DNA of 64,000 bases, taken from NCBI RefSeq assembly GCF_009674825.1, contig NZ_WKJH01000021.1, positions 1 to 64,000 on the forward strand. The letters are read 5' to 3'. A model generated the notes under the pieces. That model was not told the origin of the DNA and ran no database searches. It was given only the letters and a program-made list of their open reading frames with translations. The position numbers were made by a program, and so were the translations under genes. The DNA is from Maribacter luteus. GTDB taxonomy: Bacteria > Bacteroidota > Bacteroidia > Flavobacteriales > Flavobacteriaceae. Shown one piece after another: positions 4,889 to 25,844 of this stretch. Numbering within the stretch: position 1 is the first letter of the stretch; every line of letters starts with the position of its first letter.

Positions 4889-4922
4889 TGCATCATAAGT
4901 TACATCGTTGCGCCATAATTTT
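4889..4922 (+). promoter_or_regulatory. Twin direct-repeat operator, copy A
   Basis: TGCATCATAAGTT at 4889 and TGCGCCATAATTTT at 4909 are direct repeats 20 bp apart, the spacing expected for an AraC-type dimer. The same arrangement occurs at 25738-25773 in the second module. The site lies between the divergent regulator (start 4800) and the microprotein genes (first start 5037). Confidence 0.65.
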
Positions 4923-4987
4923 CATGGCCTCCTGAAACTTTACATAGTTCTCCGCATAGCTCATACGGGTTGCTTCAAGTTCGATGG

Positions 4988-4995
4988 CATCTTTG
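4988..4995 (+). promoter_or_regulatory. Candidate -7 promoter box of module A
   Basis: CATCTTTG followed by TA, close to the Bacteroidota TAnnTTTG consensus. It begins 79 bp after the start of the second operator repeat; the identical CATCTTTGTA box lies at exactly the same distance in module B (25837). The predicted transcript would start near 5002 and cover the microproteins and perhaps the barrel gene. Confidence 0.55.
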
Positions 4996-5036
4996 TACCA
5001 ACAAAAATCATAACAAAACAATTTAAAATAATAATT

Positions 5037-5150
5037 ATGAAAACATCAATCATAAGAACAGCAACGGAATCAAGAACAGGACAGTATTTCTCATCCTTTA
5101 GTAGCAGCAAAAGGGCGCAGTGGGCACAATACAGAAACTTCAGCAGATAA
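5037..5150 (+). CDS. Microprotein, tandem copy 1 (37 aa)
   Basis: A 37-aa basic peptide beginning MKTSIIRTATESR and ending KRAQWAQYRNFSR. The gene and its downstream spacer form a 159-bp unit repeated almost perfectly at 5196. No signal peptide or membrane segment is obvious. The divergent third copy keeps the pattern MKxSIxRTATESR...KRxxWxxxRx(F/Y), which argues that the frame is translated and selected. It is the first gene after the module A promoter. The function is unknown; it could be a signalling peptide, a leader peptide or a partner of the neighbouring regulator or barrel. I do not recognise the family. Confidence 0.55.
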   Translation: MKTSIIRTATESRTGQYFSSFSSSKRAQWAQYRNFSR

Positions 5151-5195
5151 TCTGAATCAAAAAAAAAGTAAACAATCTATAAAAACAAATAACGC

Positions 5196-5309
5196 ATGAA
5201 AACATCAATCATAAGAACAGCAACGGAATCAAGAACAGGACAGTATTTCTCATCCTTTAGTAGCAGCAAAAGGGCGCAGTGGGCACAATACAGAAACTTC
5301 AGCAGATAA
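5196..5309 (+). CDS. Microprotein, tandem copy 2 (37 aa)
   Basis: This copy has the same 37-aa translation as the gene at 5037, in the second 159-bp unit. The preceding bases end AAATAACGC before the ATG, whereas copy 1 has ATAATT, so the leaders differ slightly while the coding sequence is unchanged. Conservation of the coding part fits either a very recent duplication or gene conversion. Function unknown. Confidence 0.55.
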   Translation: MKTSIIRTATESRTGQYFSSFSSSKRAQWAQYRNFSR

Positions 5310-5354
5310 TCTGAATCAAAAAAAAAGTAAACAATCTATAAAAACAAATAACGC

Positions 5355-5477
5355 ATGAAAGCATCAATCACAAGAACCGCAACGGAATCTAGAAGGCTCA
5401 CCTTTCTTACCCATGTAAAGGATGGCAAGAGAATCCATTGGTCAAATTCCAGACCTTACCTTCATTTAGAAGCCTAG
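5355..5477 (+). CDS. Microprotein, divergent third copy (40 aa)
   Basis: A 40-aa peptide beginning MKASITRTATESRR and ending HLEA. It shares the first 13 positions with copies 1 and 2 except for two substitutions, then diverges strongly, yet keeps a KR-x2-W-x3-R-x-(F/Y) pattern near the C-terminus and an intact frame. That is the best evidence that this small family is real. It is followed by 134 bp of leader before the beta-barrel gene at 5612, so all four genes may share one transcript. Confidence 0.5.
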   Translation: MKASITRTATESRRLTFLTHVKDGKRIHWSNSRPYLHLEA

Positions 5478-5572
5478 TTTGTTGGTTTGGAAAAAGGGTT
5501 AGGCCCTAATCAAAGTCTATTCCTTACCATAACAAAATTATAACAATAATTAAAAATGTAATTATTAAATCG

Positions 5573-5605
5573 AAGATTCACGAATACCTATTAAAATTAA
5601 ATAAC
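5573..5605 (+). repeat. 33-bp leader sequence shared with the ankyrin lipoprotein gene
   Basis: The 33 bases ending just before the barrel start (5612) recur exactly at 6371-6403, just before the start at 6410. In the second copy they are in frame with an upstream ATG (6363); in the first copy that ATG is missing, so a leader role or a simple duplication is more likely than a coding role. Confidence 0.7.
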
Positions 5606-5611
5606 AAAGAC

Positions 5612-6220
5612 ATGAGTAAAACAATCAAAAAACAAGCTAAGTTAAAAGTGGCGTGCGCTGCCTTTACTTTAATATCTGCACTAGCATTTGCACAAAACAA
5701 TTCTAACACTCTAAACAGCTTTAACCGAGATGGTTTTAAGTTCGAATTTGGTCTAGGTGGTGGTATAATCAGTATAAAAGATAGTGCTGGAACCCAAGGT
5801 TTTGATGATACCCAAGGCGGTGGCACTTTTCCTGAATTAAAGTTTGGCTATATGCTAAGCAACCGTTTAGCCGTTACCGTTTCTGCACCTGGAATGATTT
5901 ACACGCTTAATGATAACGACAGGCACTTTGGAGGCATTATACCTTCTGTTCAGTACTGGGTAAAAGACCGGTGGTGGATACATGGTGGTGCCGGTTTAGC
6001 CTTAGATGGCCCTGCCTTATATGATATTGAAGATAAAATAAATGACGATTGGAATACGGGTTTAGCTGTTATGGCGAGCACGGGTTACGAAGTGTACAGA
6101 AAAAACAAATTTGCCTTAAACGTCCAATCCAAATTACTCCTGGGTGGTGTAAAGCTAGATAATAATAATGACAGAGAGGTGGTGCAATTTAGTTTAGGAA
6201 TTGGCTTTAGCTGGTTTTAA
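5612..6220 (+). CDS. Small outer-membrane beta-barrel protein (module A)
   Basis: A 202-aa exported protein. The signal peptide runs to about residue 27 (ISALAFA/Q). The mature part alternates amphipathic strands with many Gly and aromatic residues, contains FGGIIPSVQYWVKDRWWIHGG near the middle, and ends with an aromatic residue in the strand LGIGFSWF, as outer-membrane barrels do. The length suits an eight-stranded barrel. It has no enzymatic motif. A close paralogue lies at 26277-26892 in the second AraC/TPR module. It probably responds to envelope conditions sensed by the neighbouring regulator; that is an inference from context. Confidence 0.65.
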   Translation: MSKTIKKQAKLKVACAAFTLISALAFAQNNSNTLNSFNRDGFKFEFGLGGGIISIKDSAGTQGFDDTQGGGTFPELKFGYMLSNRLAVTVSAPGMIYTLNDNDRHFGGIIPSVQYWVKDRWWIHGGAGLALDGPALYDIEDKINDDWNTGLAVMASTGYEVYRKNKFALNVQSKLLLGGVKLDNNNDREVVQFSLGIGFSWF

Positions 6221-6370
6221 TCATTTGCACCGCCAAAGGGTATAATACCCCCAAGGCTTGCCTCGAAATTAAAAGTCCGTTTCCTACGAATGCATTGCGG
6301 GCTTGCCCCGAGGTCGTTTACTAAAGAAAAAATAATAGCAATAATCAAAAAAAATATAATCATGAAATCA

Positions 6371-6403
6371 AAGATTCACGAATACCTATTAAAATTAAAT
6401 AAC
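6371..6403 (+). repeat. 33-bp leader sequence, second copy
   Basis: Identical to 5573-5605. It ends 6 bp before the preferred start of the ankyrin-repeat lipoprotein (6410), the same position that copy 1 holds before the barrel gene. Confidence 0.7.
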
Positions 6404-6409
6404 ATAATC

Positions 6410-7012
6410 ATGAATAAACCATTTAGAATTATCACATTAAGAACCTTGGGATACATTTCATTAGGCCTTCTTTTACTTACGACCGCATGTGGTCAAACAA
6501 GCAGTAAATCCAAAACCGAAGTAACCACCAGTACCGAAACCAAGTCGGTAGTTGATGCACCAGAAATGGATATTCAAACAGCGATACTATCGGACAATCT
6601 TGAAGCTGTTAAACAGCATATTTCGGCAGGAACAGATTTGAACAAAAAAGACCCTATGACCGGGGCCACACCACTAATCACTGCCGCAAGCTTTGGAAAG
6701 CATAAAATTGCGCAAGCCCTTATTGATGCCGGTGCGGATTTATCGGCTAAAAATAACGATGGTGCAACAGCTTTGCATACGGCCGCATTCTTTTGTAGAG
6801 TCGAAGTCGTACAGACGCTCATTGATGCCAAAGCCGATAAATCCGCTAAAAACAATTTTGGTATGACACCAAGGGAAAGTGTTATGGGGCCATTTGCAGA
6901 AATAAAACCTATTTATGAAATGCTTCAGCAACAATTAGGGCCTATAGGTTTACAAATTGAGTTGACGGAAATCGAAAAAACCCGTCCAGTCATAGCACTG
7001 ATGTTGCAATAA
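6410..7012 (+). CDS. Ankyrin-repeat lipoprotein
   Basis: A 200-aa predicted lipoprotein. The ATG at 6410 gives a good signal with lipobox LLTTAC and Cys at residue 27; an upstream in-frame ATG at 6290 would place 40 unrelated residues first. After a Thr/Ser-rich linker, residues 55-150 hold about three ankyrin repeats: LEAVKQHISAGTDLNKKD, ATPLITAASFGKHKIAQALI, ATALHTAAFFCRVEVVQTLI. Ankyrin lipoproteins in Bacteroidota bind proteins in the envelope, sometimes as catalase or stress partners. Here it sits between the barrel gene and an acyltransferase. The specific role is unknown. Confidence 0.7.
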   Translation: MNKPFRIITLRTLGYISLGLLLLTTACGQTSSKSKTEVTTSTETKSVVDAPEMDIQTAILSDNLEAVKQHISAGTDLNKKDPMTGATPLITAASFGKHKIAQALIDAGADLSAKNNDGATALHTAAFFCRVEVVQTLIDAKADKSAKNNFGMTPRESVMGPFAEIKPIYEMLQQQLGPIGLQIELTEIEKTRPVIALMLQ

Positions 7013-7029
7013 TCGATTTAAAATTAAAC

Positions 7030-8133
7030 ATGATGAAAACTGAAAGAAGATATGATATTGATTGGTTAAGGGTTATTGCCATTGGCTTGTTGCTCATTTA
7101 TCACATCGCCATTGTATTTCAACCTTGGGCCATGTTCATTGGCTTTATCAGAAGCGATGAATTTCTAGAAGGTTTATGGAAACCAATGACCATGTTAAAC
7201 GTCTGGCGGATTCCACTATTGTTCTATGTCTCGGGTATGGGTCTCTATTTTGCCATGCGCAAGAGAAATTGGAAGCAATTGCTTCTGGAACGGACAAAGC
7301 GTATTCTTTTACCCTTCGTCTTTGGCTTTGTAGCTATAACCACCTTACACATGTATATTTTTCAGACGTATTATGATATTCCGTTGGGCTATTATCCGCA
7401 TGTAGGGCATTTATGGTTTCTAGGGAATATTTTTGCATACGTCCTGCTGTTACTGCCCTTATTTTTCTATCTGAAAAAGAACGAGAATGGAAGATTTAAA
7501 AACGGCTTGTCCAAATTCATGAGTAATCCTATTGGGCCTTTGTCGATTTCTTTATTTTTTGTATTTGAGGCCTTGCTGGTAAAACCACCATTGTTCGCTT
7601 TGTATGCGGAGACATGGCATGGTTTTTTCCTTGGATTGCTCGCTTTCTTTTTCGGTTTTCTTTTTATGTACAGCGGTAAAACCTTCTGGCAGACCGTTTT
7701 AAAATGGAGGTATTTATACCTTGGTATAGCAACCGTTCTGTATGGCATTAGATATTTTGAGTTCGCAACTGAGGCTCCCGGTTATCTTACGGCCATAGAA
7801 GCCAATTGTTGGATTTTCGGAGTTTTTGGGCTGGGTTATAAATACTTGAACAGACCAAGTAAAATCCTAAGTTACCTAAGCCAGGCAGCATATCCGGTGT
7901 ACATTATTCATATGTTCGTACTGTATATAGGGGCTATGCTCATATTACCTTTGGAAATGCCCACAGTGCTAAAATTCATTGCTATTACTGCCTTTACCGG
8001 TATTGTTTGCTATCTTTTATACGAGTTTGTTCTTCGGAGAGTTGTTTTTTTAAGACCTTTTTTCGGATTAAAATGGACATCAAAAAAAATCGAAAGATCA
8101 AAACTTCACTCCCCCGATATAAATTTAGAATAG
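7030..8133 (+). CDS. Membrane acyltransferase, acyltransferase family 3
   Basis: A 367-aa integral membrane protein with about ten hydrophobic segments. The N-terminus YDIDWLRVIAIGLLLIYHIAIVF carries the His of the acyltransferase-3 (OafA/MdoC) family, followed by the WRIPLLFYVSGMGLYFAM region and RTKRILLPF. Such enzymes move acyl groups onto periplasmic or surface glycans such as O-antigen or glucans. It begins 18 bp after the ankyrin gene, so they may be co-transcribed. The acceptor cannot be deduced from the sequence. Confidence 0.75.
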   Translation: MMKTERRYDIDWLRVIAIGLLLIYHIAIVFQPWAMFIGFIRSDEFLEGLWKPMTMLNVWRIPLLFYVSGMGLYFAMRKRNWKQLLLERTKRILLPFVFGFVAITTLHMYIFQTYYDIPLGYYPHVGHLWFLGNIFAYVLLLLPLFFYLKKNENGRFKNGLSKFMSNPIGPLSISLFFVFEALLVKPPLFALYAETWHGFFLGLLAFFFGFLFMYSGKTFWQTVLKWRYLYLGIATVLYGIRYFEFATEAPGYLTAIEANCWIFGVFGLGYKYLNRPSKILSYLSQAAYPVYIIHMFVLYIGAMLILPLEMPTVLKFIAITAFTGIVCYLLYEFVLRRVVFLRPFFGLKWTSKKIERSKLHSPDINLE

Positions 8134-8189
8134 TATGGTAAGGCTGAAATACTTAATAAGAGAATAACTCTTGAAATCCATAAATTAAT

Positions 8190-8957
8190 ATGAAGATCTT
8201 TCGAAAAATACGGTTTAAACTATTGGGTGAAAATAAGACTAGACAATATGCACTATATTCCATAGGTGAAATAGTGCTGGTTGTCATCGGAATATTAATT
8301 GCCTTACAAATTGACAATTGGAACCAGTCCAGAAAAGATGACAATGCTTTAAAGGAGTATTTAGTAAAAATCAAGTCCCACACTTCGGAAGATCTTCGGC
8401 AACTAGAGGAGATAACGCGGGGTAGGGCACAAATAGCCGATTTCTGCAAAAAGGCCCGTACAAGTATCTTAGATAAGACAGAAGATGAGAATTTCCATAT
8501 CTTTAAGATAAGTGGTCTTGCCTTTGCGGATTTTTATTTTAAACCGAATACAGGCGGATATGAGGCTCTTAAAAATTCCGAATATTTTGGAAAGATTAAT
8601 AATACCCCGTTGGATTCGCTATTGACCAAATACCATAGTTTAGTAGAAGTCATTGCCGAAAACGAGAAAAGTTATAACGATTATATGGTAGATCAAGAGG
8701 CCTATCTTTCTACCCAGTTCGATCTATCGTTAATTTTAGCGTCCGCTGTTATGTCACAAGATGCCTTAAGTATGAGGGCAACGCCACAATCCGAGTACGA
8801 TGAGGCCTTTAAGCAATATACGGTGTCCGCTCCTTACCGAAATGTTATTAGTTTGGCGGCCTTTCAATTTGATGAAATGATCAATCAGTATAATCAATTA
8901 GGAGCTATTGGACAAAGCGTTAGCAATGAAATAAATGCAATGATCACCGTTGATTAA
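8190..8957 (+). CDS. DUF6090-type membrane-anchored protein
   Basis: A 255-aa protein with a basic N-terminus (MKIFRKIRFKL), one transmembrane helix ending in the family hallmark GEIVLVVIGILIALQIDNWN at about residues 27-46, and an acidic, helical extracytoplasmic part. I recognise this as the DUF6090 family, widespread in Flavobacteriia with several copies per genome. A second member is at 40559-41323. The function is unknown. It lies between the acyltransferase and a four-helix membrane protein. Confidence 0.7.
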   Translation: MKIFRKIRFKLLGENKTRQYALYSIGEIVLVVIGILIALQIDNWNQSRKDDNALKEYLVKIKSHTSEDLRQLEEITRGRAQIADFCKKARTSILDKTEDENFHIFKISGLAFADFYFKPNTGGYEALKNSEYFGKINNTPLDSLLTKYHSLVEVIAENEKSYNDYMVDQEAYLSTQFDLSLILASAVMSQDALSMRATPQSEYDEAFKQYTVSAPYRNVISLAAFQFDEMINQYNQLGAIGQSVSNEINAMITVD

Positions 8958-8996
8958 ATTTAAAAGACTTCTTTACCAAACTCTAGCACTAAAAAA

Positions 8997-9587
8997 ATGA
9001 CCAAGAAAAAAACAAAACAAATAACCAAATTCTTTCAGAAAAATATTGCTGGTAAAAAAGTATTATCACTTTTCATAATTACCAATGTAGTATATGTATT
9101 CATGCTTACTGTTACTATTCCCAAAACAATGGAATTTTCAAATGGAATGAAATTGCTTGATATGTTACCAATGGGATATGACTTCAATTATGTCGACCAG
9201 CTATTCAACACACTCGGAGAAATTGGACGTAAGACTTATTTAAGCAATCAAATACCTGTGGATATGTTTTATCCACTTTTATTTGGAATAAGTTATTGCT
9301 TAGTTCTTGCCTATTTTCTTAACAAACTCGACAAACTAAAAACGGTGTTGGCATATCTCTGTCTTTTGCCTTTATTAGCCGGAGCGATGGATTACGCTGA
9401 AAATATAGGAATCATTGCTATACTCAACAGCTATCCCGAAATAGACCATAGTACTGTAACAATAACGAGTAGTTTCAGTCTTCTTAAGAGTACGATCACG
9501 ACACTCTATTTCGTGATTTTAATAATATCGCTGGGAGCACTAGGAATTAGAACTCTGAGAATAGGTAAAAGTACCAAGTCCCATTAG
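8997..9587 (+). CDS. Four-helix integral membrane protein of unknown function
   Basis: A 196-aa protein with hydrophobic segments at about residues 20-42, 90-108, 116-135 and 160-182, separated by a longer extracytoplasmic loop (FNYVDQLFNTLGEIGRKTYL). Its N-terminus is Lys-rich. No known catalytic motif is seen. It starts 40 bp after the DUF6090 gene. I do not recognise the family by name. Confidence 0.55.
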   Translation: MTKKKTKQITKFFQKNIAGKKVLSLFIITNVVYVFMLTVTIPKTMEFSNGMKLLDMLPMGYDFNYVDQLFNTLGEIGRKTYLSNQIPVDMFYPLLFGISYCLVLAYFLNKLDKLKTVLAYLCLLPLLAGAMDYAENIGIIAILNSYPEIDHSTVTITSSFSLLKSTITTLYFVILIISLGALGIRTLRIGKSTKSH

Positions 9588-9589
9588 TG

Positions 9590-9706
9590 GTATGGGCTGT
9601 AAAGAATGATAACCAATTCATTGGGCAAAGGATAGCTATTGAACAACTATTTAGCACCATTGGCAGGAAAAACAAAGATGTAAAGACAATCAAATTAGCA
9701 CTGTAA
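9590..9706 (+). pseudogene. C-terminal remnant of an unidentified gene
   Basis: A 38-codon open frame without a start codon, translating to VWAVKNDNQFIGQRIAIEQL and onward to KTIKLAL before a stop. The composition looks protein-like rather than random, and it fills most of the spacer between two intact genes. It may be the tail of a gene whose front was lost by deletion. The family is not recognised. Confidence 0.25.
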
Positions 9707-9736
9707 ATAGACGTGTAGTCACCTAATAAACTTATT

Positions 9737-10591
9737 ATGAGTAACGAACCAAAAAATCAGAAAAAAGTCCGGAAAACGATACTGTTGTTTTTGGGTATTT
9801 TGACCCTGCTAAGTACTATCTGTTATTACGCAATACTCAAGCTGAACCCTACAAGCATCTATGTCGGGGCTTTAATGATGAGCCCTGCATTATCCGCCTT
9901 TATTACATTAAAGCTAATGAAAAGACCGATTTCAAGTCTTTCTTGGGGTCTGAAAAGTTTGAAAAATTTACGCCTATCCTATTTGATTCCGGTAGCCTAC
10001 ATTACGATTTCTTATATATTAATTTGGGTTATCGGTTTTGGAAATGTGATCAATCAGGAAACTATCACCGAGTGGTCGCAAGATTTAGGCATGGAAGGTT
10101 TCAGTAGTACTATTATACTATTGACTATGATTGTTCTCTTATGTATTGTTGGTGTTGTAAAGAACATTGGTTCGACATTGGGCGAGGAAATAGGATGGCG
10201 GGGATTCTTCATCTACGAACTTCGGAAACTATTTTCCTTTGGCACTGTTTCTATAATTAGTGGCCTAATTTGGGCGATATGGCATTGGCCAATTATCTTT
10301 TTGATATACAAGGGAAGTGGAAACATGTTGCTACACATTACAGCTTTTACCGTAATGATAGTTGCAATTTCGGTCATTTTGGCCTACTATACTTTTAAAT
10401 CCAACAGCTTGTGGCCTGCGGTCCTATTTCATTCCGTACACAATATATTCATACAGAAGATTTTCACGCCGTTGACGATAACAAATGACCGCACTACTTT
10501 TTGGATAGATGAATACGGACTCATGCTACCGATTATTACGACGCTATTTGCCATCTATTTTTGGAGAAAGGCGAAAGTTGAGAACCTATAG
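9737..10591 (+). CDS. CPBP-family intramembrane metalloprotease
   Basis: A 284-aa membrane protein with about eight hydrophobic segments. The CPBP (Abi/CAAX-protease-like, PF02517) motifs are all present: GEEIGWRGFF (tandem Glu plus Arg), HWP in the next helix, and FHSVHN in the later helix. In bacteria such proteins process small peptides, mature prenylated-like substrates or give self-immunity to bacteriocins. The gene lies upstream of a serine hydrolase and a thioredoxin-like gene in the same direction. The substrate is unknown; the microproteins at 5037-5477 are a speculative possibility. Confidence 0.8.
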   Translation: MSNEPKNQKKVRKTILLFLGILTLLSTICYYAILKLNPTSIYVGALMMSPALSAFITLKLMKRPISSLSWGLKSLKNLRLSYLIPVAYITISYILIWVIGFGNVINQETITEWSQDLGMEGFSSTIILLTMIVLLCIVGVVKNIGSTLGEEIGWRGFFIYELRKLFSFGTVSIISGLIWAIWHWPIIFLIYKGSGNMLLHITAFTVMIVAISVILAYYTFKSNSLWPAVLFHSVHNIFIQKIFTPLTITNDRTTFWIDEYGLMLPIITTLFAIYFWRKAKVENL

Positions 10592-10630
10592 GTTTTAAAA
10601 TAATAAAATGAAAAAACAAACAACCGTATT

Positions 10631-11674
10631 ATGGCAAAGAAACAATCAAAACGAATACTCAAAATCATATTAATTATGGCAAGCATCAGCTCACTATTCT
10701 TTGTACCATGGACTTTGCTAAGATTACTGTTAACACCATTGCCTGATACGGTTGAAGAACAGGTCAATGATGCTATTGGATACGGATTGGACGGCATGAT
10801 TGTTTATGTAGAACAAGCTGGCAAGCCACCTCAATTTTATGCCGCTGGTTGGCAGGATCGAAAGAATAAAATTCCTGCCAACCCAAAAGCTTTATTCCGG
10901 ATTGCCAGCATTAGCAAGTTGTATGTTGCTGTTGCTGTAGCAAAATTAGTTAATGACAATCAGTTGTCTTTAGATAAAACGCTCGCTGATTATATGCCGG
11001 AACTGGTGGGACGAATTGAAAATGCCGATAAAATCACCTTGAGAATGATGGTGCAACATCGGTCTGGTATTCCGAACTACACGGACTTTCCAGGTTTTTG
11101 GGTAAACGACTATTCGAAAAATACCAAAGAATCGCTCGATTTGGTCCTCGATACTCCTGCCGATTTTAAACCGGATAAAAAATATAGGTACTCAAATACC
11201 AATTATCTGTTGATTGGCGAAATCTTGGATAAAACATTGGGATATAGTCATCACCAATTTATTAAAAAAGAAATTTTAATGCCCCTCGGGCTCAACCACA
11301 CCTACAGTTTGCTAAGTGAAGTGAATTTAGACGATGTAATGAGCGGATATGCCGTGGATTATGAGCCAGACCTAAAGCCCAATGATTTTGTAAGCCCTGC
11401 CGGCTCCATGGTGGCTACAGCACAGGATGTGGGTATATTCTTGAGGGCGTTGAACGACGGCTCCTTGCTCAATGATACTGAACAAGCTATCTATTCATCT
11501 ATTTATATATATGAACATACAGGATTATTACCAGGTTACAGCAGTATTGCCAAGTATCACAAGGATATTGATGCTGTTGTTGTTCAATTTGTAAATACCA
11601 GTGGCGGATACTCTTGGAACGTATCAGAAAAAATTAATAATAGAATTGTAAAAATCCTGAAAAGGAGAAAGTAA
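10631..11674 (+). CDS. Serine hydrolase of the beta-lactamase/penicillin-binding family
   Basis: A 347-aa protein with an N-terminal membrane signal (ILKIILIMASISSLFFVPW). The class C-type catalytic motifs are visible: SxxK in RIASISKLYVAVAVAKL with the Ser at about residue 97, YxN in KYRYSNTNYLLIGEIL, and LSLDKTLADYMPEL between them. The usual terminal HxG motif is replaced by TGLLPGYSS, as in many esterase-like members. It probably acts in the periplasm as a D-alanyl peptidase, esterase or beta-lactamase-like enzyme. True beta-lactamase activity cannot be judged from sequence. Confidence 0.75.
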   Translation: MAKKQSKRILKIILIMASISSLFFVPWTLLRLLLTPLPDTVEEQVNDAIGYGLDGMIVYVEQAGKPPQFYAAGWQDRKNKIPANPKALFRIASISKLYVAVAVAKLVNDNQLSLDKTLADYMPELVGRIENADKITLRMMVQHRSGIPNYTDFPGFWVNDYSKNTKESLDLVLDTPADFKPDKKYRYSNTNYLLIGEILDKTLGYSHHQFIKKEILMPLGLNHTYSLLSEVNLDDVMSGYAVDYEPDLKPNDFVSPAGSMVATAQDVGIFLRALNDGSLLNDTEQAIYSSIYIYEHTGLLPGYSSIAKYHKDIDAVVVQFVNTSGGYSWNVSEKINNRIVKILKRRK

Positions 11675-11718
11675 CCAATACCTTAAAATTAATATACTTG
11701 ATAAAAAAAACAGATAGT

Positions 11719-12198: not shown

Positions 12199-12223
12199 TT
12201 CTAAGTAAGGTAGAAGCGCCTGA

Positions 12224-12388: not shown

Positions 12389-12409
12389 AATTCATTTAAT
12401 ACAATTAAC

Positions 12410-13896: not shown

Positions 13897-14041
13897 AGGT
13901 CAAGATTAATTAAATAAAATTCCTCCTACAAATTAGTTGACAAACAATAGATACACAGGGATAAACACCTACTTAGTTGGGATAAAGTACGTTTGTACCC
14001 TTCTTAAGGTGTTGTATCACGCCTAACATGAGATGTGTCAC

Positions 14042-14078: not shown

Positions 14079-14104
14079 CCTCAATCAATCGAAAAACGAA
14101 CAGT

Positions 14105-18285: not shown

Positions 18286-18611
18286 TTTCTTGCCTTATGG
18301 CACTTTATCAGGTTGCGAAATTAAGATTGAACATCTTATAAAATTATAGTTTATTACTAGGTCCATGAATACCAAACTAAATAACTAGCAATGAATATGC
18401 TGAAACGGAAGGTCAGAGAAGTACTATTTGTAAAAATAGTAATGACCAGAGTAAACACTAATTTTACGGCCCGAGCCCGATAGCTATCGGGGGAGGTGAG
18501 GGAAATAGGTATAGGAGGAAACTTTATTTCTATTTACGCTAAAACCTTCAATCGTGCGTCTATGTATTTTTCCTTTCAGTATTTAAAATCAATGTGTTTC
18601 TTTGTATATCG
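18286..18611. other. Intergenic region with the palindrome CCCGATAGCTATCGGG
   Basis: About 325 bp without a gene. It holds the perfect 16-bp palindrome at 18476-18491, a motif I know as strongly over-represented between genes of Flavobacteriia, where it may act as a terminator or nucleoid signal. The promoter of the next kinase gene must lie in the last 100 bp, but no clean TAnnTTTG box was seen. Confidence 0.6.
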
Positions 18612-19703
18612 ATGAATATCAGTACAAAAACACTCAAAAGTAATAGAACAAACGCCCTTTATTGGAAATGCCAATTATTAGGATGGTGTACGGTTTCTAT
18701 TTATTGGGCATACACGGTTTATACCAGGGATAACTATGGGGTGTATTACACTTTCTGTAATTATGTTTTGGATGTTGCCATCGGAATTTTCCTTACCCAC
18801 ATGTACAGAACATATGCTTTAAAGGAAAATTGGAGTCAATTACCCATTAAAAAGCTGCTTGTTCGCGTAATTCCCAGTATACTTTTATTGGCTTTTTTAT
18901 ATGTGCTTTTAAACAATTTGAAGTGGTATGGTTACTGGACCTTCATCGCAGAAGAAGATAAGGATATATGGGTGTCGCTTCTTTATTGGGACCCCATATT
19001 ACTTACCGGTTTACGGTTAATGTCTATCTGGATTTTAGCGTATCATCTGTATCATTATTATCAAAAAGAAGTTGTAACGGCAAGAGAATATGCTCAACTT
19101 TCCTTAGTGGCGAAACAAGCACAATTAGATAATTTATCGGCTCAACTAAACCCACATTTTTTATTTAATTCCTTGAATTCCATAAAGTCCTTAATTGTTG
19201 AGAACCCTAATGTAGCCAGACGTGGGATAGACTTATTATCCGACTTATTACGTTCCTCTTTATATGAAAAAGATAAGGACCTAATTTCAGTAAAAAACGA
19301 AATAGCTTTAGTAAATGATTACATAGAGTTGGAAAAACTTCGTTTTGAAGAACGATTGGAAATAGACATTACTCTTGATAAGACGTTAGCCCATTTTAAA
19401 ATTCCAACCTTGAGCATCCAGTTATTGGTTGAAAATGCCATTAAACACGGAATTGACAAAGTTATTGAAGGTGGGCAAATAACTTTGAAAATTGGTAAGG
19501 ACGGAGATCAAGTCTATATACAAGTTCAAAATCCAGGAAAATTAACTGATACTAAACCTGCAAAAGGTTTAGGTTTAATGAACTTAAAGAAACGCCTGGA
19601 GCTTCAATATAATAAAGAGGCTTCTATTACTTTAGAAGAAATAGCTAATAATATAGTACAAGCGACTATACTAGTACCCTATAAAACAGATGAAAACATA
19701 TAA
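18612..19703 (+). CDS. LytS-type sensor histidine kinase (second system)
   Basis: A 363-aa kinase; the ATG at 18612 is chosen over a GTG at 18594. Four membrane segments lie in residues 20-155, followed by a coiled-coil linker (KQAQLDNLSAQL), the His motif LNPHFLFNSLNSIKSL, N box LLVENAIKHGI and G motif KGLGLMNLKKRLELQY. The end overlaps the regulator start by 14 bp, which implies coupled translation. It probably controls the lipoprotein and CocE/NonD hydrolase genes downstream, or the ABC/M1 operon upstream; this is positional inference. Confidence 0.88.
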   Translation: MNISTKTLKSNRTNALYWKCQLLGWCTVSIYWAYTVYTRDNYGVYYTFCNYVLDVAIGIFLTHMYRTYALKENWSQLPIKKLLVRVIPSILLLAFLYVLLNNLKWYGYWTFIAEEDKDIWVSLLYWDPILLTGLRLMSIWILAYHLYHYYQKEVVTAREYAQLSLVAKQAQLDNLSAQLNPHFLFNSLNSIKSLIVENPNVARRGIDLLSDLLRSSLYEKDKDLISVKNEIALVNDYIELEKLRFEERLEIDITLDKTLAHFKIPTLSIQLLVENAIKHGIDKVIEGGQITLKIGKDGDQVYIQVQNPGKLTDTKPAKGLGLMNLKKRLELQYNKEASITLEEIANNIVQATILVPYKTDENI

Positions 19704-20412
19704 AGCGGTTATTATCGATGATGAACGTTTAGCGCGAGAAGAGGTAAAACGTGCTTTAAAAAAATATCCGGAATTTATCGTTGTTGGAGAGGCAAACAAT
19801 GTGGATGCGGCCATAAAATTGATTGCGAATGAAGATCCAGACCTATTGTTTTTGGACATACACATGCCTGAAAAGTCAGGATTTGATTTATTAGAAGAAT
19901 TAACCACCGTTCCAGAAGTTGTTTTTACAACTGCGTATGACCAATACGCTGTAAAAGCTTTTGAGTTGAATGCATTAGATTATTTGGTTAAACCTTTACG
20001 GGAAGAACGTTTTGCAAAAACCATAGAAAAAGTAAAGCAGGAGTTGGTAGAGAAGGCAAAGGTGCCACAAGATGTTTTGCCCATGCATAAAAAGATTTTT
20101 ATTAAAGACGGCGAATCTTGTTACTTTATTCCAATTTCTGATATCTACTATATTGAATCGATGGATAATTATGCGCGCCTATACTTTGGTGGTAAAAAGG
20201 CTATGATCAAACGTTCATTAAATCTACTTGAAAAAAAGTTAGATACCACCGTGTTTTTTAGAGCCAATAGGGGTCAAATTATCAACACACATTTTATTAA
20301 AGAAATTCACCCGCATTTTAATAATAAGCTACACATCATCTTGATTTCTGGTGAAAAGATTGAAGTTTCAAGCCGACAGTCTGTTAAGTTTAAAAACTGG
20401 AATAGCTTATAA
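19690..20412 (+). CDS. LytTR-family response regulator (second system)
   Basis: A 240-aa regulator with acidic residues D10/D11, phospho-acceptor at about Asp56 (LLFLDIHMP), Thr/Ala in FTTAYDQYAV and Lys in YLVKPLREERF. The LytTR domain (140-238) has the KIFIKDGESCYFIPISDIYY strand region and FFRANRGQIINTHFIK. It overlaps its kinase gene. It is the paralogue of the regulator at 12410 but in the opposite orientation, so the ABC/M1 operon lies between two sensors that may cross-talk. Confidence 0.88.
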   Translation: MKTYKAVIIDDERLAREEVKRALKKYPEFIVVGEANNVDAAIKLIANEDPDLLFLDIHMPEKSGFDLLEELTTVPEVVFTTAYDQYAVKAFELNALDYLVKPLREERFAKTIEKVKQELVEKAKVPQDVLPMHKKIFIKDGESCYFIPISDIYYIESMDNYARLYFGGKKAMIKRSLNLLEKKLDTTVFFRANRGQIINTHFIKEIHPHFNNKLHIILISGEKIEVSSRQSVKFKNWNSL

Positions 20413-20541
20413 TTGATTGGTTTGTAAATTAATTTTACGCTTATTTTCTTTTATTCACGTTCCTGTACTTTCCCTTTACACATTTATATATTCATCATTT
20501 CTTTGCTTCATAGATAAAATTTTAATTAAAAAAATAGAACG

Positions 20542-21150
20542 ATGTGTAACTTCAAAAATAAGTATCACCTACCTGTAATTCTAATTGTTTTGATCATTAT
20601 GGGACTATATTCATGCACCAATGACACCTTAAAAATCGCTGCGCAACCTACTTTATCCGATTATTCCGTTGGAGAAAAATGGATCTGGAAGTATAAAGGT
20701 GTTACCACCGAAGGCGAGGTACGTTCAGAGGGAGAAGATACAAGAGAAGTAGTTATTGCAGATGGTGTTTTGGGGATGACAATGGGTAATGATACGATTC
20801 CAATAACAGACATTGTAAAACCGGAAGAAAGCGAAACGCCAAGATATGACTGGCCTTTGGAAGTGGGTAAAAAGTGGAAATATGAAAAAAATTGGACAAG
20901 TCAAGATGGTACCACAGGAAAGCAAAGTCAAGATGTCGAGGTTTTATCCTTTAAAGAAGAAACGGTAGAAGCAGGAACGTTCATGGCCTATACGATTCAA
21001 TACAAAGGTGTAATAACAAATTCGAGAGGGTATAATGCCAAAACGGATGAAGTTTGGTTGTATGCTCCAGCTGTAAAAAATTTCATAAAACTTACCCAAA
21101 CTCAAGATGACTTTTTATACGAAGAGGAGTTAAAGCAGTATTCAAACTAA
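20542..21150 (+). CDS. Lipoprotein of unknown function (two similar beta-rich halves)
   Basis: A 202-aa lipoprotein with signal LIVLIIMGLYSC and Cys at about residue 25. The mature part carries the phrase SVGEKWIWKYKG near its start and LEVGKKWKYEKNW in the middle, two related beta-strand units, plus EVWLYAPAVKNFIKL near the end, typical of small Bacteroidota lipocalin-like or DUF3108-like envelope proteins. It lies 130 bp after the LytTR regulator and 46 bp before the CocE/NonD hydrolase gene. The function is unknown. Confidence 0.55.
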   Translation: MCNFKNKYHLPVILIVLIIMGLYSCTNDTLKIAAQPTLSDYSVGEKWIWKYKGVTTEGEVRSEGEDTREVVIADGVLGMTMGNDTIPITDIVKPEESETPRYDWPLEVGKKWKYEKNWTSQDGTTGKQSQDVEVLSFKEETVEAGTFMAYTIQYKGVITNSRGYNAKTDEVWLYAPAVKNFIKLTQTQDDFLYEEELKQYSN

Positions 21151-21195
21151 AATGAAAATCGAGCATTTTCCCACTGCACTTTAAAAAAGGAAACA

Positions 21196-23421
21196 ATGAA
21201 AAAAACATTCTTGATAGTATTTCTAATTCTAATTCATCTTACTTCTTTTGGACAAGAATTTAACTTTAAAAAAGTACAAGCGTCCAATGCAAAGGCCCTT
21301 GCAAATCAAATGCAAGCCTTAGCGGCATCTTATCCGCTAAAGGAGTTATCAGGTTTGGACTTGATCAAGGTTCAGATCGTAAGTGGAAAATATGACGATG
21401 CCATAGCAACTATCGAGAAAGAAATTAAGGACAAGCCAAAAACGGAACAGATATATATAAATTTATATCACCAGTATGCTAAAGCAAAACTCACACCTAA
21501 CTTTCCTGTGGCCTTTAAAGAATTATATAAATCCTATGTGACAAAGGCCGATGATTTTCAGGTACTGAATTTAGATGACACATTAATTGCCAGAGATGGT
21601 ACAGACTATTTTATTTCTGATTTTGAACGTACGTATGAGAATATAACTGCTGAAACGATTTCGAATGAAACTGCACAAAACTTAATCCACAAATATTTCT
21701 TAAAAAAGGTTTATGAATCCACCAGAGATTTGTTTTTTCAAGCAATACAGCAAGACCATAAACGCAGATATATTATAAATGATAGCATAATAGTGCCAAT
21801 GAAAGATGGTGCAGAAGTTTCCGTAGTAGTGGTTGAAAGAAAAGAGACTATCAAAGCTAAGAAACCTGCCATCTTAATTGCTTCTATTTACGCAGGTACC
21901 AATGAGACTGGGGCTATGTTATCAGCCTCAAAAGGCTATGTTGGAGTGATAGCCAATACAAGGGGAAAACGATTGAGCAGAGGTGAGATAAAGCCTCTTG
22001 AATATGAAAATATGGATGTTTATGAAGTGATTGATTGGATTAGCAAGCAGCCTTGGTCCAATCAAAAAGTAGGTATGTACGGTGGTAGTTATAACGGATT
22101 TACCCAATGGGCATCCATGAAACATAAAGTGCATCCAGCTTTAAAAACCATTGTTCCCATGGTAGCCATTGCACCCGGAATTGATTATCCAATGGAAAAT
22201 AATGTCCTGCATAATTATTCCTACTCTTGGAATTTTTATGTGACCAATAATAAGTTCCTGGATTTTAAAGCTTCACAAGATTTTAATCGTTGGAATACCT
22301 TAAAAAACACATGGTATACCTCTGGGGTTGCCTTTAATAAATTGGATAGCTTGGATGGACATGTAAATAAATTATGGAATACCTATATGGAGCATCCCAG
22401 TTATGATAATTTCTGGAAAAAAATGATTCCTTACAAACAGGAATTTGTAAAAATCAACATTCCAATTCTGACCATAACAGGCTATTATGACGATTCTCAA
22501 AGAGGAGCCCTATATTATTTTGACCAGCATAATAAGTATGTAAAAAATCCAAATCACTATGTATTGGTAGGACCTTATGATCATTGGACGGCGCAAACCC
22601 AACCTCAGGAGTTCTTAAGAGATTATAAATTAGATAAAACCGCCCTAATTGACATTAGGTATGACCTGGTATATCAATGGTTCGATTATATCTTAAAAGG
22701 TAAAGAAAAACCAAGCATTTTAAAAGATAAAGTCAACTTTCAGGTAATGGATACCAATACCTGGATGCATAAACCGAGTTTAAGTGCCATGACCAACGAT
22801 ACGTTGACTTTTTATTTAAGTGATGATAAAACGGATGATTTTTATGCGCTTAAATCGAAATCGGATGCTTCTAAAATTGACTTAACCGTTGATTTTAAAG
22901 ATAGGGAAAGCATGAATAACACAGGGTATTATCCTTGGCCTTTAGAAAAGGAAAACATCAATATAAAGGATGGATTGTTATTTAAATCGGAACCCTTAAA
23001 GGAGGATGTGATTATCAATGGATCCTTTCTCGGGAATCTAGAATTTACTATCAATAAAAAAGATGTTGATTATTCCGTTATCCTATATCAATTAACTCCA
23101 GAAGGTAATTATTTTCATTTAAGCTATTATATAGGCAGAGCGAGCTATTCCAAAGATCGAGAACAAAGAAATTTATTGACACCGAATCAAAAAACGCAAG
23201 TGTCTTTCGACAATTCGAAACTAATCAGTAAAAAATTAGAAAAAGGAAGTAGGATGGTAGTTGTGGTAAACCTCAATAAAAACAATAATGCACAACTTAA
23301 TTATGGAACAGGTAGGGATGTGAATGAAGAAAATATTAAAGATGCAAAAGTCCCGTTAAAAATTATGTTTTCAGGTAATAGTAGTATTTCCTTACCGGTT
23401 TGGTATTCCCTGAAGGAATAA
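21196..23421 (+). CDS. CocE/NonD-family hydrolase (X-Pro dipeptidyl-peptidase-like)
   Basis: A 741-aa secreted enzyme with signal peptide KKTFLIVFLILIHLTSFGQ. An N-terminal helical part (25-190) precedes the S15 alpha/beta-hydrolase core beginning DSIIVPMKDGAEVSVVVVER. The nucleophile elbow GMYGGSYNGF places Ser at about 299; the acid is in TGYYDDSQRG (about 431) and the His in VGPYDHW (about 462). The C-terminal X-Pro jelly-roll starts near 510. Family members cleave X-Pro peptides, acyl esters or amides such as cephalosporin side chains. Expression is probably tied to the LytTR system upstream. Confidence 0.85.
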   Translation: MKKTFLIVFLILIHLTSFGQEFNFKKVQASNAKALANQMQALAASYPLKELSGLDLIKVQIVSGKYDDAIATIEKEIKDKPKTEQIYINLYHQYAKAKLTPNFPVAFKELYKSYVTKADDFQVLNLDDTLIARDGTDYFISDFERTYENITAETISNETAQNLIHKYFLKKVYESTRDLFFQAIQQDHKRRYIINDSIIVPMKDGAEVSVVVVERKETIKAKKPAILIASIYAGTNETGAMLSASKGYVGVIANTRGKRLSRGEIKPLEYENMDVYEVIDWISKQPWSNQKVGMYGGSYNGFTQWASMKHKVHPALKTIVPMVAIAPGIDYPMENNVLHNYSYSWNFYVTNNKFLDFKASQDFNRWNTLKNTWYTSGVAFNKLDSLDGHVNKLWNTYMEHPSYDNFWKKMIPYKQEFVKINIPILTITGYYDDSQRGALYYFDQHNKYVKNPNHYVLVGPYDHWTAQTQPQEFLRDYKLDKTALIDIRYDLVYQWFDYILKGKEKPSILKDKVNFQVMDTNTWMHKPSLSAMTNDTLTFYLSDDKTDDFYALKSKSDASKIDLTVDFKDRESMNNTGYYPWPLEKENINIKDGLLFKSEPLKEDVIINGSFLGNLEFTINKKDVDYSVILYQLTPEGNYFHLSYYIGRASYSKDREQRNLLTPNQKTQVSFDNSKLISKKLEKGSRMVVVVNLNKNNNAQLNYGTGRDVNEENIKDAKVPLKIMFSGNSSISLPVWYSLKE

Positions 23422-23836
23422 TCAAATTTTGATTAGTATTTCATAGGCAAAAAAAGCCTGTTCAATTCTCCTTTTGGCTGTTTTTTTCCATGGACAGCAC
23501 CTATTGATTGAGCTAAAATAACGATACGTTGAGTTCCATTGTAAAAATATTTGAGAAAAGGAGCCCCATAGATTAATTTAATGGATTTGGTATCATCTCA
23601 CAAATAGTTATGGAATCGAGTGAAGTCCATAACCTTTACTTTCTGTTTTTCGGTATCTAGGTTGAAAGCCCTGAACAAGTTATTTTGTAAAGGTGTATCG
23701 TACATATGCATAGAAGTCAATATGGAATCGATATAGATTACTTGCTTCTCAAACATTTCAAATTTTCATGATAAAGTATGGTACTATAACATACGGGTAT
23801 TGAAACAAAATGTTTTCGTAAATTTAATTTCTAGTT
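23422..23836. other. Spacer holding a broken minus-strand reading frame
   Basis: A 415-bp interval between the hydrolase and the TPR/AraC regulator. Most of it is occupied by the minus-strand pseudogene at 23433-23756. The last 80 bp before 23837 would carry the promoter of the regulator; no clear box was seen. Confidence 0.5.
23433..23756 (-). pseudogene. Unidentified gene fragment with one in-frame TGA
   Basis: From an ATG at 23756 the frame runs 108 codons with a single internal stop (TGA after HNYL) and ends with TAA. On both sides the translation looks protein-like: MFEKQVIYIDSILTSMHMYD before it, and SIKLIYGAPFLKYFYNGTQR and RIVILAQSIGAVHGKKQP after it. A TGG-to-TGA change would explain it. 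The family is not recognised. It is antisense to its neighbours. Confidence 0.35.
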
Positions 23837-25627
23837 ATGAATTCAATTAATAAAAAATCCATAGCAGTTTTACCTTTCGTCAATATGAGTAATGATATTG
23901 AAAACGAATACTTCTGTGATGGATTAACTGAAGAAATCATTAACGCTTTAGCAAAAATCAAACAACTTTCCGTTACTTCACGTACATCTTCATTTTATTT
24001 TAAAAACAAGTCAGTAACAGCAAAGGAAATAAGAGAAAAATTGAAGGTAGCTACCTTTATTGAAGGTAGTGTAAGAACATCAAAAAAGAAAATGCGCATT
24101 ACAGTACAAATGATTGACACTGTGGATGACTTTCATTTCTGGTCAGAAACCTTTGATAGAAACCCAGAAAACATTTTTGAAATTCAAGATGAAATTAGTC
24201 TGTTTATTGCTGAAAAATTACGAGAACATGTAGGCCATATACAGATACAAGATAGGTTAGTAGTACCTATTGATGTGCCTGTAGCCATTTATAGAGAATA
24301 CCTGAAAGGGAGGTATTACATCATGAAGTTGGATTATAACAACTCTATAAAGGGTATCAATATCTTAAAAGAAGTCATACATAAATCCCCTAATTTTTCA
24401 AGCCCTTATCTAGATATTAATTTAGCTTATGTTAATATCGGAACCATGGGGCTTTTACCTGCATTTGAAGCCTACGAAAAAGCCCAGTCTTATTTATTAA
24501 GGGCTTTAGAGTTAGACCCAAACTCATCAAGGTCACAATTGAATTTGGCTTGGATAGAATGCTGGCAAAACTGGAATCTTAAGAAAGCTTACGAACATGC
24601 CAATAAGGCTTTGGAGATGCAACAAGCAGACGATATTTACTTAACCATTTCTAATTTTTTGACCGTAGAAGGAAAATTAGATGCGGCACTGAATTATCTT
24701 GACAAAGCCTTACAATTAGATCCTTATGCCGCTATAAATCATCATTACAAGGGTTTTTTATACTACTTGAAAGAAGATTATAAAACTGCGATACCTTATC
24801 TAAAAAAGGCATTAGATTTAGACCCTAAGTTACCCTTTCCACCAATTTATATAGGGATTTGTTTATTAATGTCAGGCAAACCAAATGAAGCTTTAACATA
24901 TTTCGGTTCACTTGAAGGCGTTTCTGTGAAAGACCTCACCAAATTAGGAGGTGAAACCATGTGTTATGCAAAACTCAATGAAACGGAAAAGTGTAATGAT
25001 GGATTAAAAGAATTAGAGACGTATTTAAATACTGATCTTGTAGATAAGGCATTTACGTTTTTGATATTAGTAAATGCCTTGTTAGGTAATAACGAAAAGG
25101 TAATTGATTTAATAACTCAAGCATACAATAATCGTTTGCCCGTAATTTTATTACTTAATCCATCACCAATTCTTAAACCTGTTAAAAATCACAAAAGGTT
25201 TAAAGACATCATGCTAAAAGCCATTCCAGATAATTTAAATTATAAACAGAAAAAGAAGTATAAACAGGCTTTACTAGATTCCAACGAAATCAAAAAGTAC
25301 AGCAAAGAACTAGAGCAAATAATGATAGACTACAAACTGTATTTAAATCCAGACCTATCCTTAAAAGATTTAGCTTCTTACTTGGAACTTCCTGCTAATT
25401 ATGTCTCGCAATTATTAAACTTGGGGTTTCAAAAAAACTTTTCGGAATATGTTAATACCTATAGAATTAACGAATTTAAAGAGCGGGTTCTTCTAGAGGA
25501 AAACAAGGGCTTAACCTTAATGGCTGTAGCTTATGATAGTGGTTTTAACTCTAAAACAGTCTTCAATACCTTTTTTAAAAAAATAGAGGGGATAACACCA
25601 AATACTTACCTTAAGAGTAATAGTTAG
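23837..25627 (+). CDS. Soluble TolB-like/TPR protein with C-terminal AraC DNA-binding domain
   Basis: A 596-aa protein. Residues 8-140 begin KSIAVLPFVNMSNDIENEYF and form the same TolB-N/FlgO-like domain as in the 2749-4800 regulator; residues 145-440 are TPR repeats; residues 505-596 are an AraC-type HTH domain (LSLKDLASYLELPANYVSQL... GFNSKTVFNTFFKKIEGITP). The order is reversed compared with the module A protein, and no membrane segment or signal is visible, so it should sense in the cytoplasm. An operator with direct repeats lies 110 bp downstream, ahead of a 49-aa peptide and a barrel pseudogene. Regulation of these genes is inferred from the matching promoter at 4889. Confidence 0.75.
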   Translation: MNSINKKSIAVLPFVNMSNDIENEYFCDGLTEEIINALAKIKQLSVTSRTSSFYFKNKSVTAKEIREKLKVATFIEGSVRTSKKKMRITVQMIDTVDDFHFWSETFDRNPENIFEIQDEISLFIAEKLREHVGHIQIQDRLVVPIDVPVAIYREYLKGRYYIMKLDYNNSIKGINILKEVIHKSPNFSSPYLDINLAYVNIGTMGLLPAFEAYEKAQSYLLRALELDPNSSRSQLNLAWIECWQNWNLKKAYEHANKALEMQQADDIYLTISNFLTVEGKLDAALNYLDKALQLDPYAAINHHYKGFLYYLKEDYKTAIPYLKKALDLDPKLPFPPIYIGICLLMSGKPNEALTYFGSLEGVSVKDLTKLGGETMCYAKLNETEKCNDGLKELETYLNTDLVDKAFTFLILVNALLGNNEKVIDLITQAYNNRLPVILLLNPSPILKPVKNHKRFKDIMLKAIPDNLNYKQKKKYKQALLDSNEIKKYSKELEQIMIDYKLYLNPDLSLKDLASYLELPANYVSQLLNLGFQKNFSEYVNTYRINEFKERVLLEENKGLTLMAVAYDSGFNSKTVFNTFFKKIEGITPNTYLKSNS

Positions 25628-25737
25628 TTCTGATTTAAAAAATAGAACCTTCCTTTTATAAGCTACAATTAGTTTTGCTTCATCAAATTAGTAACAGTAA
25701 GAGATTACTTGATTTATTCTTTGGCAATATTTTAAAA

Positions 25738-25773
25738 TGCGTCATAATTTATAGTGCTGCGTCATAATTTTCA
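25738..25773 (+). promoter_or_regulatory. Twin direct-repeat operator, copy B
   Basis: TGCGTCATAATTT at 25738 and TGCGTCATAATTTTCA at 25758, again 20 bp apart. The two half-sites are nearly identical here, so the consensus is TGCGYCATAATTTTCA. The 90 bp downstream can be aligned without gaps to 4909-5000, with an extra conserved AAACTTT block. Confidence 0.7.
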
Positions 25774-25836
25774 ATCTATCATCAAACTTTTTATATAAGG
25801 CTACATAAGTGTTTAGAGGCATATTACTTCTTGATC

Positions 25837-25844
25837 CATCTTTG
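25837..25844 (+). promoter_or_regulatory. Candidate -7 promoter box of module B
   Basis: CATCTTTG followed by TA, beginning exactly 79 bp after the second operator repeat, as in module A. The transcript would begin near 25851 and run through about 220 bp of leader into the small gene at 26077 and the barrel pseudogene. Confidence 0.55.

What the first reader, a model, noticed from the sequence alone, without database searches (positions are those of the whole stretch)
4889..25844. Two AraC/TPR modules share a promoter of fixed geometry
At 4889 and 25738, 20.8 kb apart, two direct repeats TGCRYCATAA-TT lie exactly 20 bp apart. In both, CATCTTTGTA begins exactly 79 bp after the start of the second repeat, and the bases between align without gaps, including an AAACTTT block. 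Each site stands next to an AraC-domain protein with TolB-like and TPR parts and leads to a small gene and a beta-barrel gene of the same family. This points to an undescribed regulatory module that occurs as paralogues with a membrane-bound and a soluble version. Seen: repeats, spacing, gene order. Inferred: binding by the regulators.
Basis: partly seen in the sequence, partly recalled or inferred. Interest (0 to 1): 0.85.

Follow-up and report, generated by a model that had tools for sequence, protein, structure and literature searches.

The report
Five-repeat operator beside AraC-TPR membrane regulators
A roughly 100-letter DNA control element made of regularly spaced repeats sits next to one kind of membrane-anchored gene regulator in many Bacteroidota, usually in front of the same envelope genes, and looks like an undescribed genetic switch.

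Summary
In detail: both repeat pairs exist, 20 bp apart, with CATCTTTG exactly 79 bp after the second repeat. But the pair is only the start of a longer element of direct repeats at offsets 0, 20, 40, 61 and (weakly) 82, ending at the Bacteroidota -7 box. Among 80 loci fetched with membrane regulator 1 (2749-4800), 78 carry the array divergent and just upstream; the other two lack that DNA. An ankyrin lipoprotein-like gene follows in 76 of 78 and an acyltransferase in 74 of 78. More distant regulators carry a diverged array behind their genes: 11 of 26 beyond all 200 shuffles, or 9 of 22 without those where it was first noticed. Regulator 1 is predicted to be AraC HTH, membrane helix and CadC-like sensor.

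Site 2 is best read as a satellite target of regulator 1. Binding and activation are inferred. Six aimed paper searches found no description.

The parts
2749..4800 (-). Regulator 1 (683 aa): N-terminal AraC HTH, one predicted membrane helix, CadC-like alpha/beta domain, TPR solenoid; predicted reader of the array
   Evidence: Pfam HTH_18 and TPR; AF2 mean pLDDT 88.7, HTH helices 11-102, helix 130-150, a/b domain 163-282, TPR 289-679; Foldseek CadC 3ly8 TMt 0.70
4889..4986 (+). Array 1: direct repeats at 4889, 4909, 4929, 4950 and (weak) 4971, 16 bp each
4988..4995 (+). -7 promoter box CATCTTTG of array 1 (consensus TAnnTTTG, first base differs)
   Evidence: consensus from passages of PMC9723704
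5037..5150 (+). 37-aa microprotein, copy 1, first ORF behind array 1
   Evidence: pN/pS 0.19 over 13 copies
5196..5309 (+). 37-aa microprotein, copy 2 (159-bp tandem duplication)
5355..5477 (+). 40-aa relative of the microprotein (second type)
5612..6220 (+). Outer-membrane beta-barrel-like protein, 202 aa
   Evidence: weak OMP_b-brl match E 0.031, below the cut-off; cluster c4
6290..7012 (+). Ankyrin-repeat protein with lipoprotein-like N-terminus (own reading), core gene 1; ORF as listed, true start probably further in
   Evidence: Pfam Ank; 76 of 78 loci
7030..8133 (+). Membrane acyltransferase, core gene 2
   Evidence: Pfam Acyl_transf_3; 74 of 78 loci
8190..8957 (+). DUF6090 protein, accessory
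   Evidence: 12 of 78 loci
10631..11674 (+). Serine hydrolase of the beta-lactamase/PBP family, a frequent further gene elsewhere
   Evidence: Pfam Beta-lactamase; below the cut-off of each of the 25 NCBIfam rows shown; 33 of 78 loci
23837..25627 (+). Regulator 2 (596 aa): no N-terminal membrane helix seen, CadC/TPR-like N-terminal part and C-terminal AraC HTH; probably reads another operator
25627..25648 (+). Dyad GTTCTGATTTAAAAAATAGAAC at the stop codon of regulator 2: candidate operator of regulator 2
   Evidence: 0 mismatches here; at most 2 mismatches and not reached in 200 shuffles in 11 of 15 orthologues
25670..25677 (+). TAGTTTTG, fits the -7 box TAnnTTTG, behind the dyad
   Evidence: read
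25738..25835 (+). Array 2: repeats at 25738, 25758, 25778, 25799 and (weak) 25820; a satellite array without divergent regulator 1
   Evidence: 84 bits with model R1
25837..25844 (+). -7 promoter box CATCTTTG of array 2
26077..26226 (+). 49-aa small ORF with hydrophobic stretch behind array 2
   Evidence: no Pfam or NCBIfam match
26277..26804 (+). Barrel gene 2, frameshifted in the window (its end reads in another frame, ORF 26713-26892); an intact copy exists in a relative

Best explanation
The element is a conserved operator-promoter for a membrane-integrated one-component regulator. Regulator 1 is predicted to keep its AraC-type DNA-binding domain in the cytoplasm, cross the membrane once and expose a CadC-like alpha/beta plus TPR sensor to the periplasm. 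On a periplasmic signal several regulator molecules bind head to tail on one face of the DNA, over four clear repeats and one degenerate repeat spaced about two helical turns apart. The last repeat ends just before the -7 box, where a -33 element would lie, so the most promoter-proximal subunit can contact RNA polymerase and activate the ankyrin and acyltransferase genes and often a serine hydrolase: envelope or glycan modification. Shown by sequence: array, spacing, near-fixed distance to the -7 box, close association with regulator 1, conserved gene order, diverged arrays behind some paralogous regulators. Inferred: binding, number of subunits, activation rather than repression, topology, the signal. 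Site 2 is most likely a satellite target of regulator 1 in trans.
For: Repeat structure: a matrix made from repeats 1-2 peaks at offsets 0, 20, 61, 40 on 53 held-out arrays; offset 82 is sixth, behind an unexplained peak at 94. On the 48 discovery arrays the peak at 61 exceeds all 1000 column permutations and the peak at 40 falls just under the best of them; 82 does not exceed the null. Lags 20, 41, 21, 40 come first over whole orthologue arrays and 21 first in the part after the pair; a coding control does not show them. Distance to the -7 box: 79 in 43, 80 in 4 of 48, and the one left over was set one repeat late and gives 79 when set right; 79 in 69, 80 in 8, unread in 1 of 78. Pairwise identity 0.84, 0.83, 0.56, 0.55, 0.38 for repeats 1-5, 0.73 for the -7 box, 0.34 between array and regulator. 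Association: 24 of 24 orthologues in 199 family genomes; 78 of 80 fetched loci, two lacking the DNA; 8 of 8 strong hits outside the family carry regulator, ankyrin and acyltransferase. Paralogues: 11 of 26 3' flanks beyond 200 shuffles (9 of 22 without the four where arrays were first noticed), against 1 of 25 5' flanks read forward and 0 of 25 read backward. HTH helix SRSxLLR in 74 of 74 orthologues read and SRSxLHR in 24 of 26 paralogues, while bases 4-5 of the repeat go from mostly GT, GC or AT to AA or AC in most paralogue repeats looked at.
Against: No binding or expression data. Repeat 5 is weak and repeats 3-4 are much less conserved than 1-2, so perhaps two to four sites are really bound. 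7 of 26 paralogue 3' flanks have no signal at p 0.05, and 5' control flanks reach p 0.05 in 3 of 25 forward and 4 of 25 backward. Paralogues and orthologues are related to each other, so counts are not independent events, and the HTH-motif covariation may reflect one change on the tree. Eight of 48 arrays lack a divergent regulator 1, and one of those genomes (G278) has no orthologue of it at E 1e-15. Topology is predicted only.
Confidence: 0.77

Rival explanations
1. Each array is read by the adjacent regulator: membrane-bound regulator 1 reads array 1, soluble regulator 2 reads array 2.
For: Array 2 lies 110 bp behind regulator 2, and arrays lie likewise in G085 and G048. All six genomes with satellite arrays have a regulator-2-type gene. 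G278 has an array and regulator 2 but no regulator 1 orthologue. In G186 and G278 the dyad was not found behind regulator 2.
Against: Of 15 genomes with a regulator 2 orthologue, 7 show no true array by pattern (one has a chance hit that the model does not score) and only 3 of 15 have it adjacent. 11 of 15 carry a conserved different dyad. The motif of array 2 is the regulator 1 motif, and the two HTH domains align only over part of the second half, 17 of 64 residues identical, E 0.003.
Confidence: 0.17
2. The array is a repressor operator: regulator 1 occludes the promoter and the signal releases it.
For: Repeat 5 overlaps the -33 region and ends just upstream of the -7 box.
Against: The stronger repeats lie upstream, as for an activator; the gap between a TTG in repeat 5 and the -7 box is short for a strong promoter (own reading). 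HTCS relatives with AraC domains are known as activators (recalled).
Confidence: 0.15
3. The repeats are a structural or recombination element, or part of an RNA, not a regulator-binding array.
For: Repeats 1-2 are more alike than most operators need (own judgement).
Against: Rfam at gathering score finds only tmRNA in the window; the array lies upstream of the -7 box, hence outside that transcript; no phage record covers 80% of the regulator; constant association with one regulator over distant lineages.
Confidence: 0.04

Closest known systems
CadC / ToxR-like membrane-integrated one-component regulators
   Same: Predicted cytoplasmic DNA-binding domain, one membrane helix, periplasmic sensor; CadC periplasmic structures are among the best fold matches (3ly8, TMt 0.70), and CadC is matched by sequence at E 1.5e-10 with 40.6 bits against a cut-off of 400
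   Different: DNA-binding domain is AraC type, not the OmpR-type winged helix (recalled for CadC); longer TPR part; multi-repeat operator
Hybrid two-component systems (HTCS) of Bacteroidota
   Same: AraC-type domain; predicted motifs are direct repeats of two sites, in one group 16 bp with a 5-bp spacer, a 21-bp period (passages of PMC3878776); the best-scoring solved AraC-type HTH by sequence is in a hybrid two-component protein (12aw)
   Different: No kinase or receiver found; HTH at the N-terminus; four to five sites at a near-fixed distance from the -7 box; envelope-type genes instead of polysaccharide loci
HilA/EilA-type regulators
   Same: Regulator 2 matches PRK12370 over residues 5-417 at E 7.5e-15
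   Different: 54 bits against a cut-off of 589; AraC-type HTH at the other end
Classical AraC-family activators with paired direct half-sites (AraC, XylS, ExsA; recalled)
   Same: Direct repeats about 21 bp apart, promoter-proximal site next to the -35/-33 region
   Different: Four to five consecutive repeats, kept in geometry over several families of a class

Membership tests
AraC-family regulator | AraC-type double HTH domain | tested here: met
   HTH_18 E 7.2e-21 for regulator 1 and 1.3e-12 for regulator 2, above the cut-off
CadC/ToxR-like membrane one-component regulator | DNA-binding domain, single membrane helix, periplasmic sensor of CadC fold | tested here: inconclusive
   Fold and helix predicted; topology not measured
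CadC/ToxR-like membrane one-component regulator | OmpR-type winged-helix DNA-binding domain | tested here: not met
   AraC HTH instead
HTCS | Histidine kinase and receiver domains | tested here: not met
   None in the Pfam scans of either regulator
Sigma-A-type Bacteroidota promoter | -7 box TAnnTTTG | tested here: met
   TTTG or, in two arrays, TTTA at offset 79 or 80 in 48 of 48 arrays once L050 is set right and in 77 of 78; both window copies differ from TAnnTTTG at the first base
AraC activator with operator array | Direct binding of the regulator to the repeats | not testable with these tools
   needs footprinting

The most novel reading that the evidence does not exclude
A family of membrane-tethered AraC-TPR regulators works by head-to-tail assembly on a fixed multi-repeat DNA ruler that ends at the -7 box. 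The ruler geometry is shared across the family while two bases of the repeat co-vary with the recognition helix, so one architecture has been re-used with changed lettering for many operons, and satellite arrays spread it to new operons. In Maribacter and relatives the first gene can be a 37-aa peptide that might feed back on the TPR sensor.
Probability: 0.3. Interest if true: 0.75.

Novelty: new variant of a known kind. Interest (0 to 1): 0.62.

Why it matters
If true, it gives an operator code for an uncharacterised kind of Bacteroidota regulator, predicts target operons genome by genome, and offers a natural system of phased AraC sites read from the membrane. It also ties an ankyrin lipoprotein-like gene and a membrane acyltransferase of unknown role to one sensor in distant lineages, which makes their function testable.

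Tried and rejected
Considered and dropped: soluble regulator 2 as main reader of array 2; barrel gene as core member (6 of 78); RNA element; phage origin (27 phage records match, none covers 80% of the protein; the five listed match the HTH part only). A class-wide paralogue search gave only four matches, all regulator 1 orthologues. Paper searches aimed at the module that led nowhere: (one unrelated paper); two searches gave background papers only. Weak model hits L125-L128 showed no regulator of this kind; the weak hit L124 did. Own-genome hits after the three strong ones (E 0.006 and worse) were not followed.

Selection to know: the 48 arrays behind the model were chosen by eye from pattern hits plus the own genome; hits without the further repeats were dropped. 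The true site in G026 was left out by oversight (80.9 bits), and one of two overlapping hits in L050 was taken one repeat late. Ten loci of dropped hits were rescored: none scored at the hit, one gave 14 bits elsewhere. The reversed-pattern control hit 14 of 397 genomes by my count, against 64 for the pattern, so some of the 64 are chance. Sequences are related, so the z-scores and the permutation values are not probabilities. My scripts used a pair-block shuffle, not a true dinucleotide shuffle. Of the 26 paralogues, four (L287, L306, L307, L308) are the ones in which the array was first seen.
Full report
Observation. Both sites are as described: repeat pairs at 4889/4909 and 25738/25758, 20 bp apart, CATCTTTG at 4988 and 25837, 79 bp after the second repeat, AAACTTT at the same offset. 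The 36-base pattern, 3 mismatches allowed, is found twice in the window and in none of 100 shuffles. The own genome has a third copy on another contig, in front of an ankyrin gene and divergent from a 62% identical second copy of regulator 1. The window is from Maribacter or close to it: the M. caenipelagi regulator is 99% identical.

The element is longer than the pair. A scan with the pair pattern at up to 3 mismatches hit 5 of 12 genus genomes and 64 of 397 family genomes, against 14 of 397 for the reversed pattern by my count. From these hits and the own genome I chose 48 arrays by eye. They show direct repeats at offsets 0, 20, 40, 61 and 82, then the -7 box; the distance from repeat 2 to the box is 79 in 43, 80 in 4, and unread in 1 of 48, an array that I had set one repeat late and that gives 79 when set right. 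On the 48, the peak at 61 exceeds all 1000 column permutations, the peak at 40 falls just below the best of them, and 82 does not exceed the null. On 53 arrays less than 85% identical to any of the 48, the matrix from repeats 1 and 2 peaks at 0, 20, 61, 40; 82 is sixth, after a peak at 94. So four repeats are firm and the fifth is weak. The box fits the sigma-A box TAnnTTTG reported for a Flavobacterium (passages of PMC9723704).

It goes with one regulator. Of the 48 arrays, 40 have the divergent regulator directly upstream; of these 40 have ankyrin and 39 acyltransferase genes behind the array. A sequence-only model R1 finds three strong hits in the own genome and then nothing better than E 0.006. 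In 346 genomes of the order the strong hits (E 1e-14 or better) lie in the family and in five genomes of one genus of another family; in 295 genomes of the class three more lie in one further family. All 8 of these 8 outside loci hold an orthologue of regulator 1 (49-59%), ankyrin and acyltransferase genes. Among 199 family genomes, 24 orthologues of regulator 1 (E 4e-178 or better) occur in 22 genomes, and 24 of 24 have the array, 22 by pattern and 2 by model. A scan of named genomes kept the best 80 of 335 relatives; 78 of 80 carry the array divergent and just upstream at 50-96 bits, and the two others, L188 and L236, are cut off inside the regulator. They include Maribacter, Zobellia, Aequorivita, Polaribacter, Algoriphagus, Cyclobacterium, Draconibacterium, Sunxiuqinia and Saprospiraceae; that these span several orders is recalled. 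Of 78, ankyrin is found in 76, acyltransferase in 74, serine hydrolase in 33, DUF6090 in 12, the 37-aa peptide in 9 (one, L219, far from the array) and barrel in 6.

The architecture is wider than the motif. Twenty-six distant regulators (29-61% identical to that of L170, and L170 itself) were taken and their flanks scored with matrices from the 78 orthologue arrays, gaps free within 19-22 and 16-18 before the box. In 11 of 26 the 3' flank beats all 200 shuffles, in 19 of 26 it reaches p 0.05. Four of the 26 are those in which the array had first been seen; without them it is 9 of 22 and 15 of 22. Control 5' flanks beat all shuffles in 1 of 25 read forward and 0 of 25 read backward, and reach p 0.05 in 3 and 4 of 25. 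In the 11 fits, 33 of 44 free gaps are 21 and 8 of 11 final gaps are 17. The lag test on 26 unaligned 3' flanks puts 21 first of 40 lags, z 4.5. In these fits the array follows the regulator on the same strand and usually reads TGCAACAT, TTCAACAT or TGCACCAT. The first recognition helix reads SRSxLLR in 74 of 74 orthologues that could be read (of 78) and SRSxLHR in 24 of 26 paralogues.

Who reads site 2. Eight of 48 arrays, in six genomes, have no divergent regulator 1. Five of the six genomes have regulator 1 elsewhere; G278 has no orthologue at E 1e-15. Regulator 2 orthologues (69% or more) occur in 15 of 339 family genomes; the array is adjacent in 3 (the window, G085, G048) and absent by pattern in 7. 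Instead 11 of 15 carry a dyad with at most two mismatches at or near the stop codon, not reached in 200 shuffles, followed in the window by TAGTTTTG. Against this, all six satellite genomes have a regulator-2-type gene, and in G186 and G278 I did not find the dyad. I read site 2 as a satellite target of regulator 1, with regulator 2 using its own dyad, and keep the opposite at 0.17.

Structure. AlphaFold2 with 40 aligned sequences gives mean pLDDT 88.7: HTH helices within 11-102, a helix at 130-150, an alpha/beta domain at 163-282 and TPR helices at 289-679. Foldseek lists TPR solenoids first and CadC periplasmic structures at ranks 9, 11, 12 and 25 (3ly8 TMt 0.70). This supports a CadC-like sensor.

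Mechanism. The most promoter-proximal repeat ends directly before the -7 box, in the place of a -33 element. With the upstream repeats on one DNA face this fits activation by cooperative head-to-tail binding. Binding, number of subunits, direction of control and signal are inferences.

Known relatives. HTCS motifs predicted in Bacteroides are direct repeats of two sites, with a 21-bp period in one group (passages of PMC3878776); CadC shares predicted membrane architecture and sensor fold. Neither has the combination seen here. Six paper searches aimed at the module gave no description in the held library, which lacks most subscription papers.

Noticed in passing
window 5037-5477: Family of 37-48 aa microproteins, often in tandem, directly behind the array in about a dozen genomes of Maribacter and relatives; 13 copies give pN/pS 0.19, which suggests coding; no Pfam or NCBIfam match.
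   Followed up: partly
window 25627-25677: Dyad GTTCYGATTTnnnAAnnnGAAC at or near the stop codon of soluble AraC-TPR regulators, followed here by TAGTTTTG; one relative of 38% protein identity still has it with 1 mismatch. A separate operator family.
   Followed up: partly
L180 versus window 7030-8133: In Maribacter caenipelagi the regulator is 99%, barrel 97% and ankyrin 98% identical to the window but the acyltransferase only 79%, while that of M. sedimenticola (L173) is 96%: looks like gene-wise recombination inside the operon.
   Followed up: no
window 29841-30923: A class I tRNA synthetase gene of the W/Y type lies in the cluster behind array 2 and recurs near 6 of 48 sites (cluster c19); perhaps a second TrpRS.
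   Followed up: no
window 26277-26892: Barrel gene 2 is frameshifted here; a 204-aa copy stands in the same place in L045.
   Followed up: no
L213: A locus labelled Thalassovita MAG carries array, regulator, ankyrin and acyltransferase genes; perhaps a mis-binned Bacteroidota contig.
   Followed up: no
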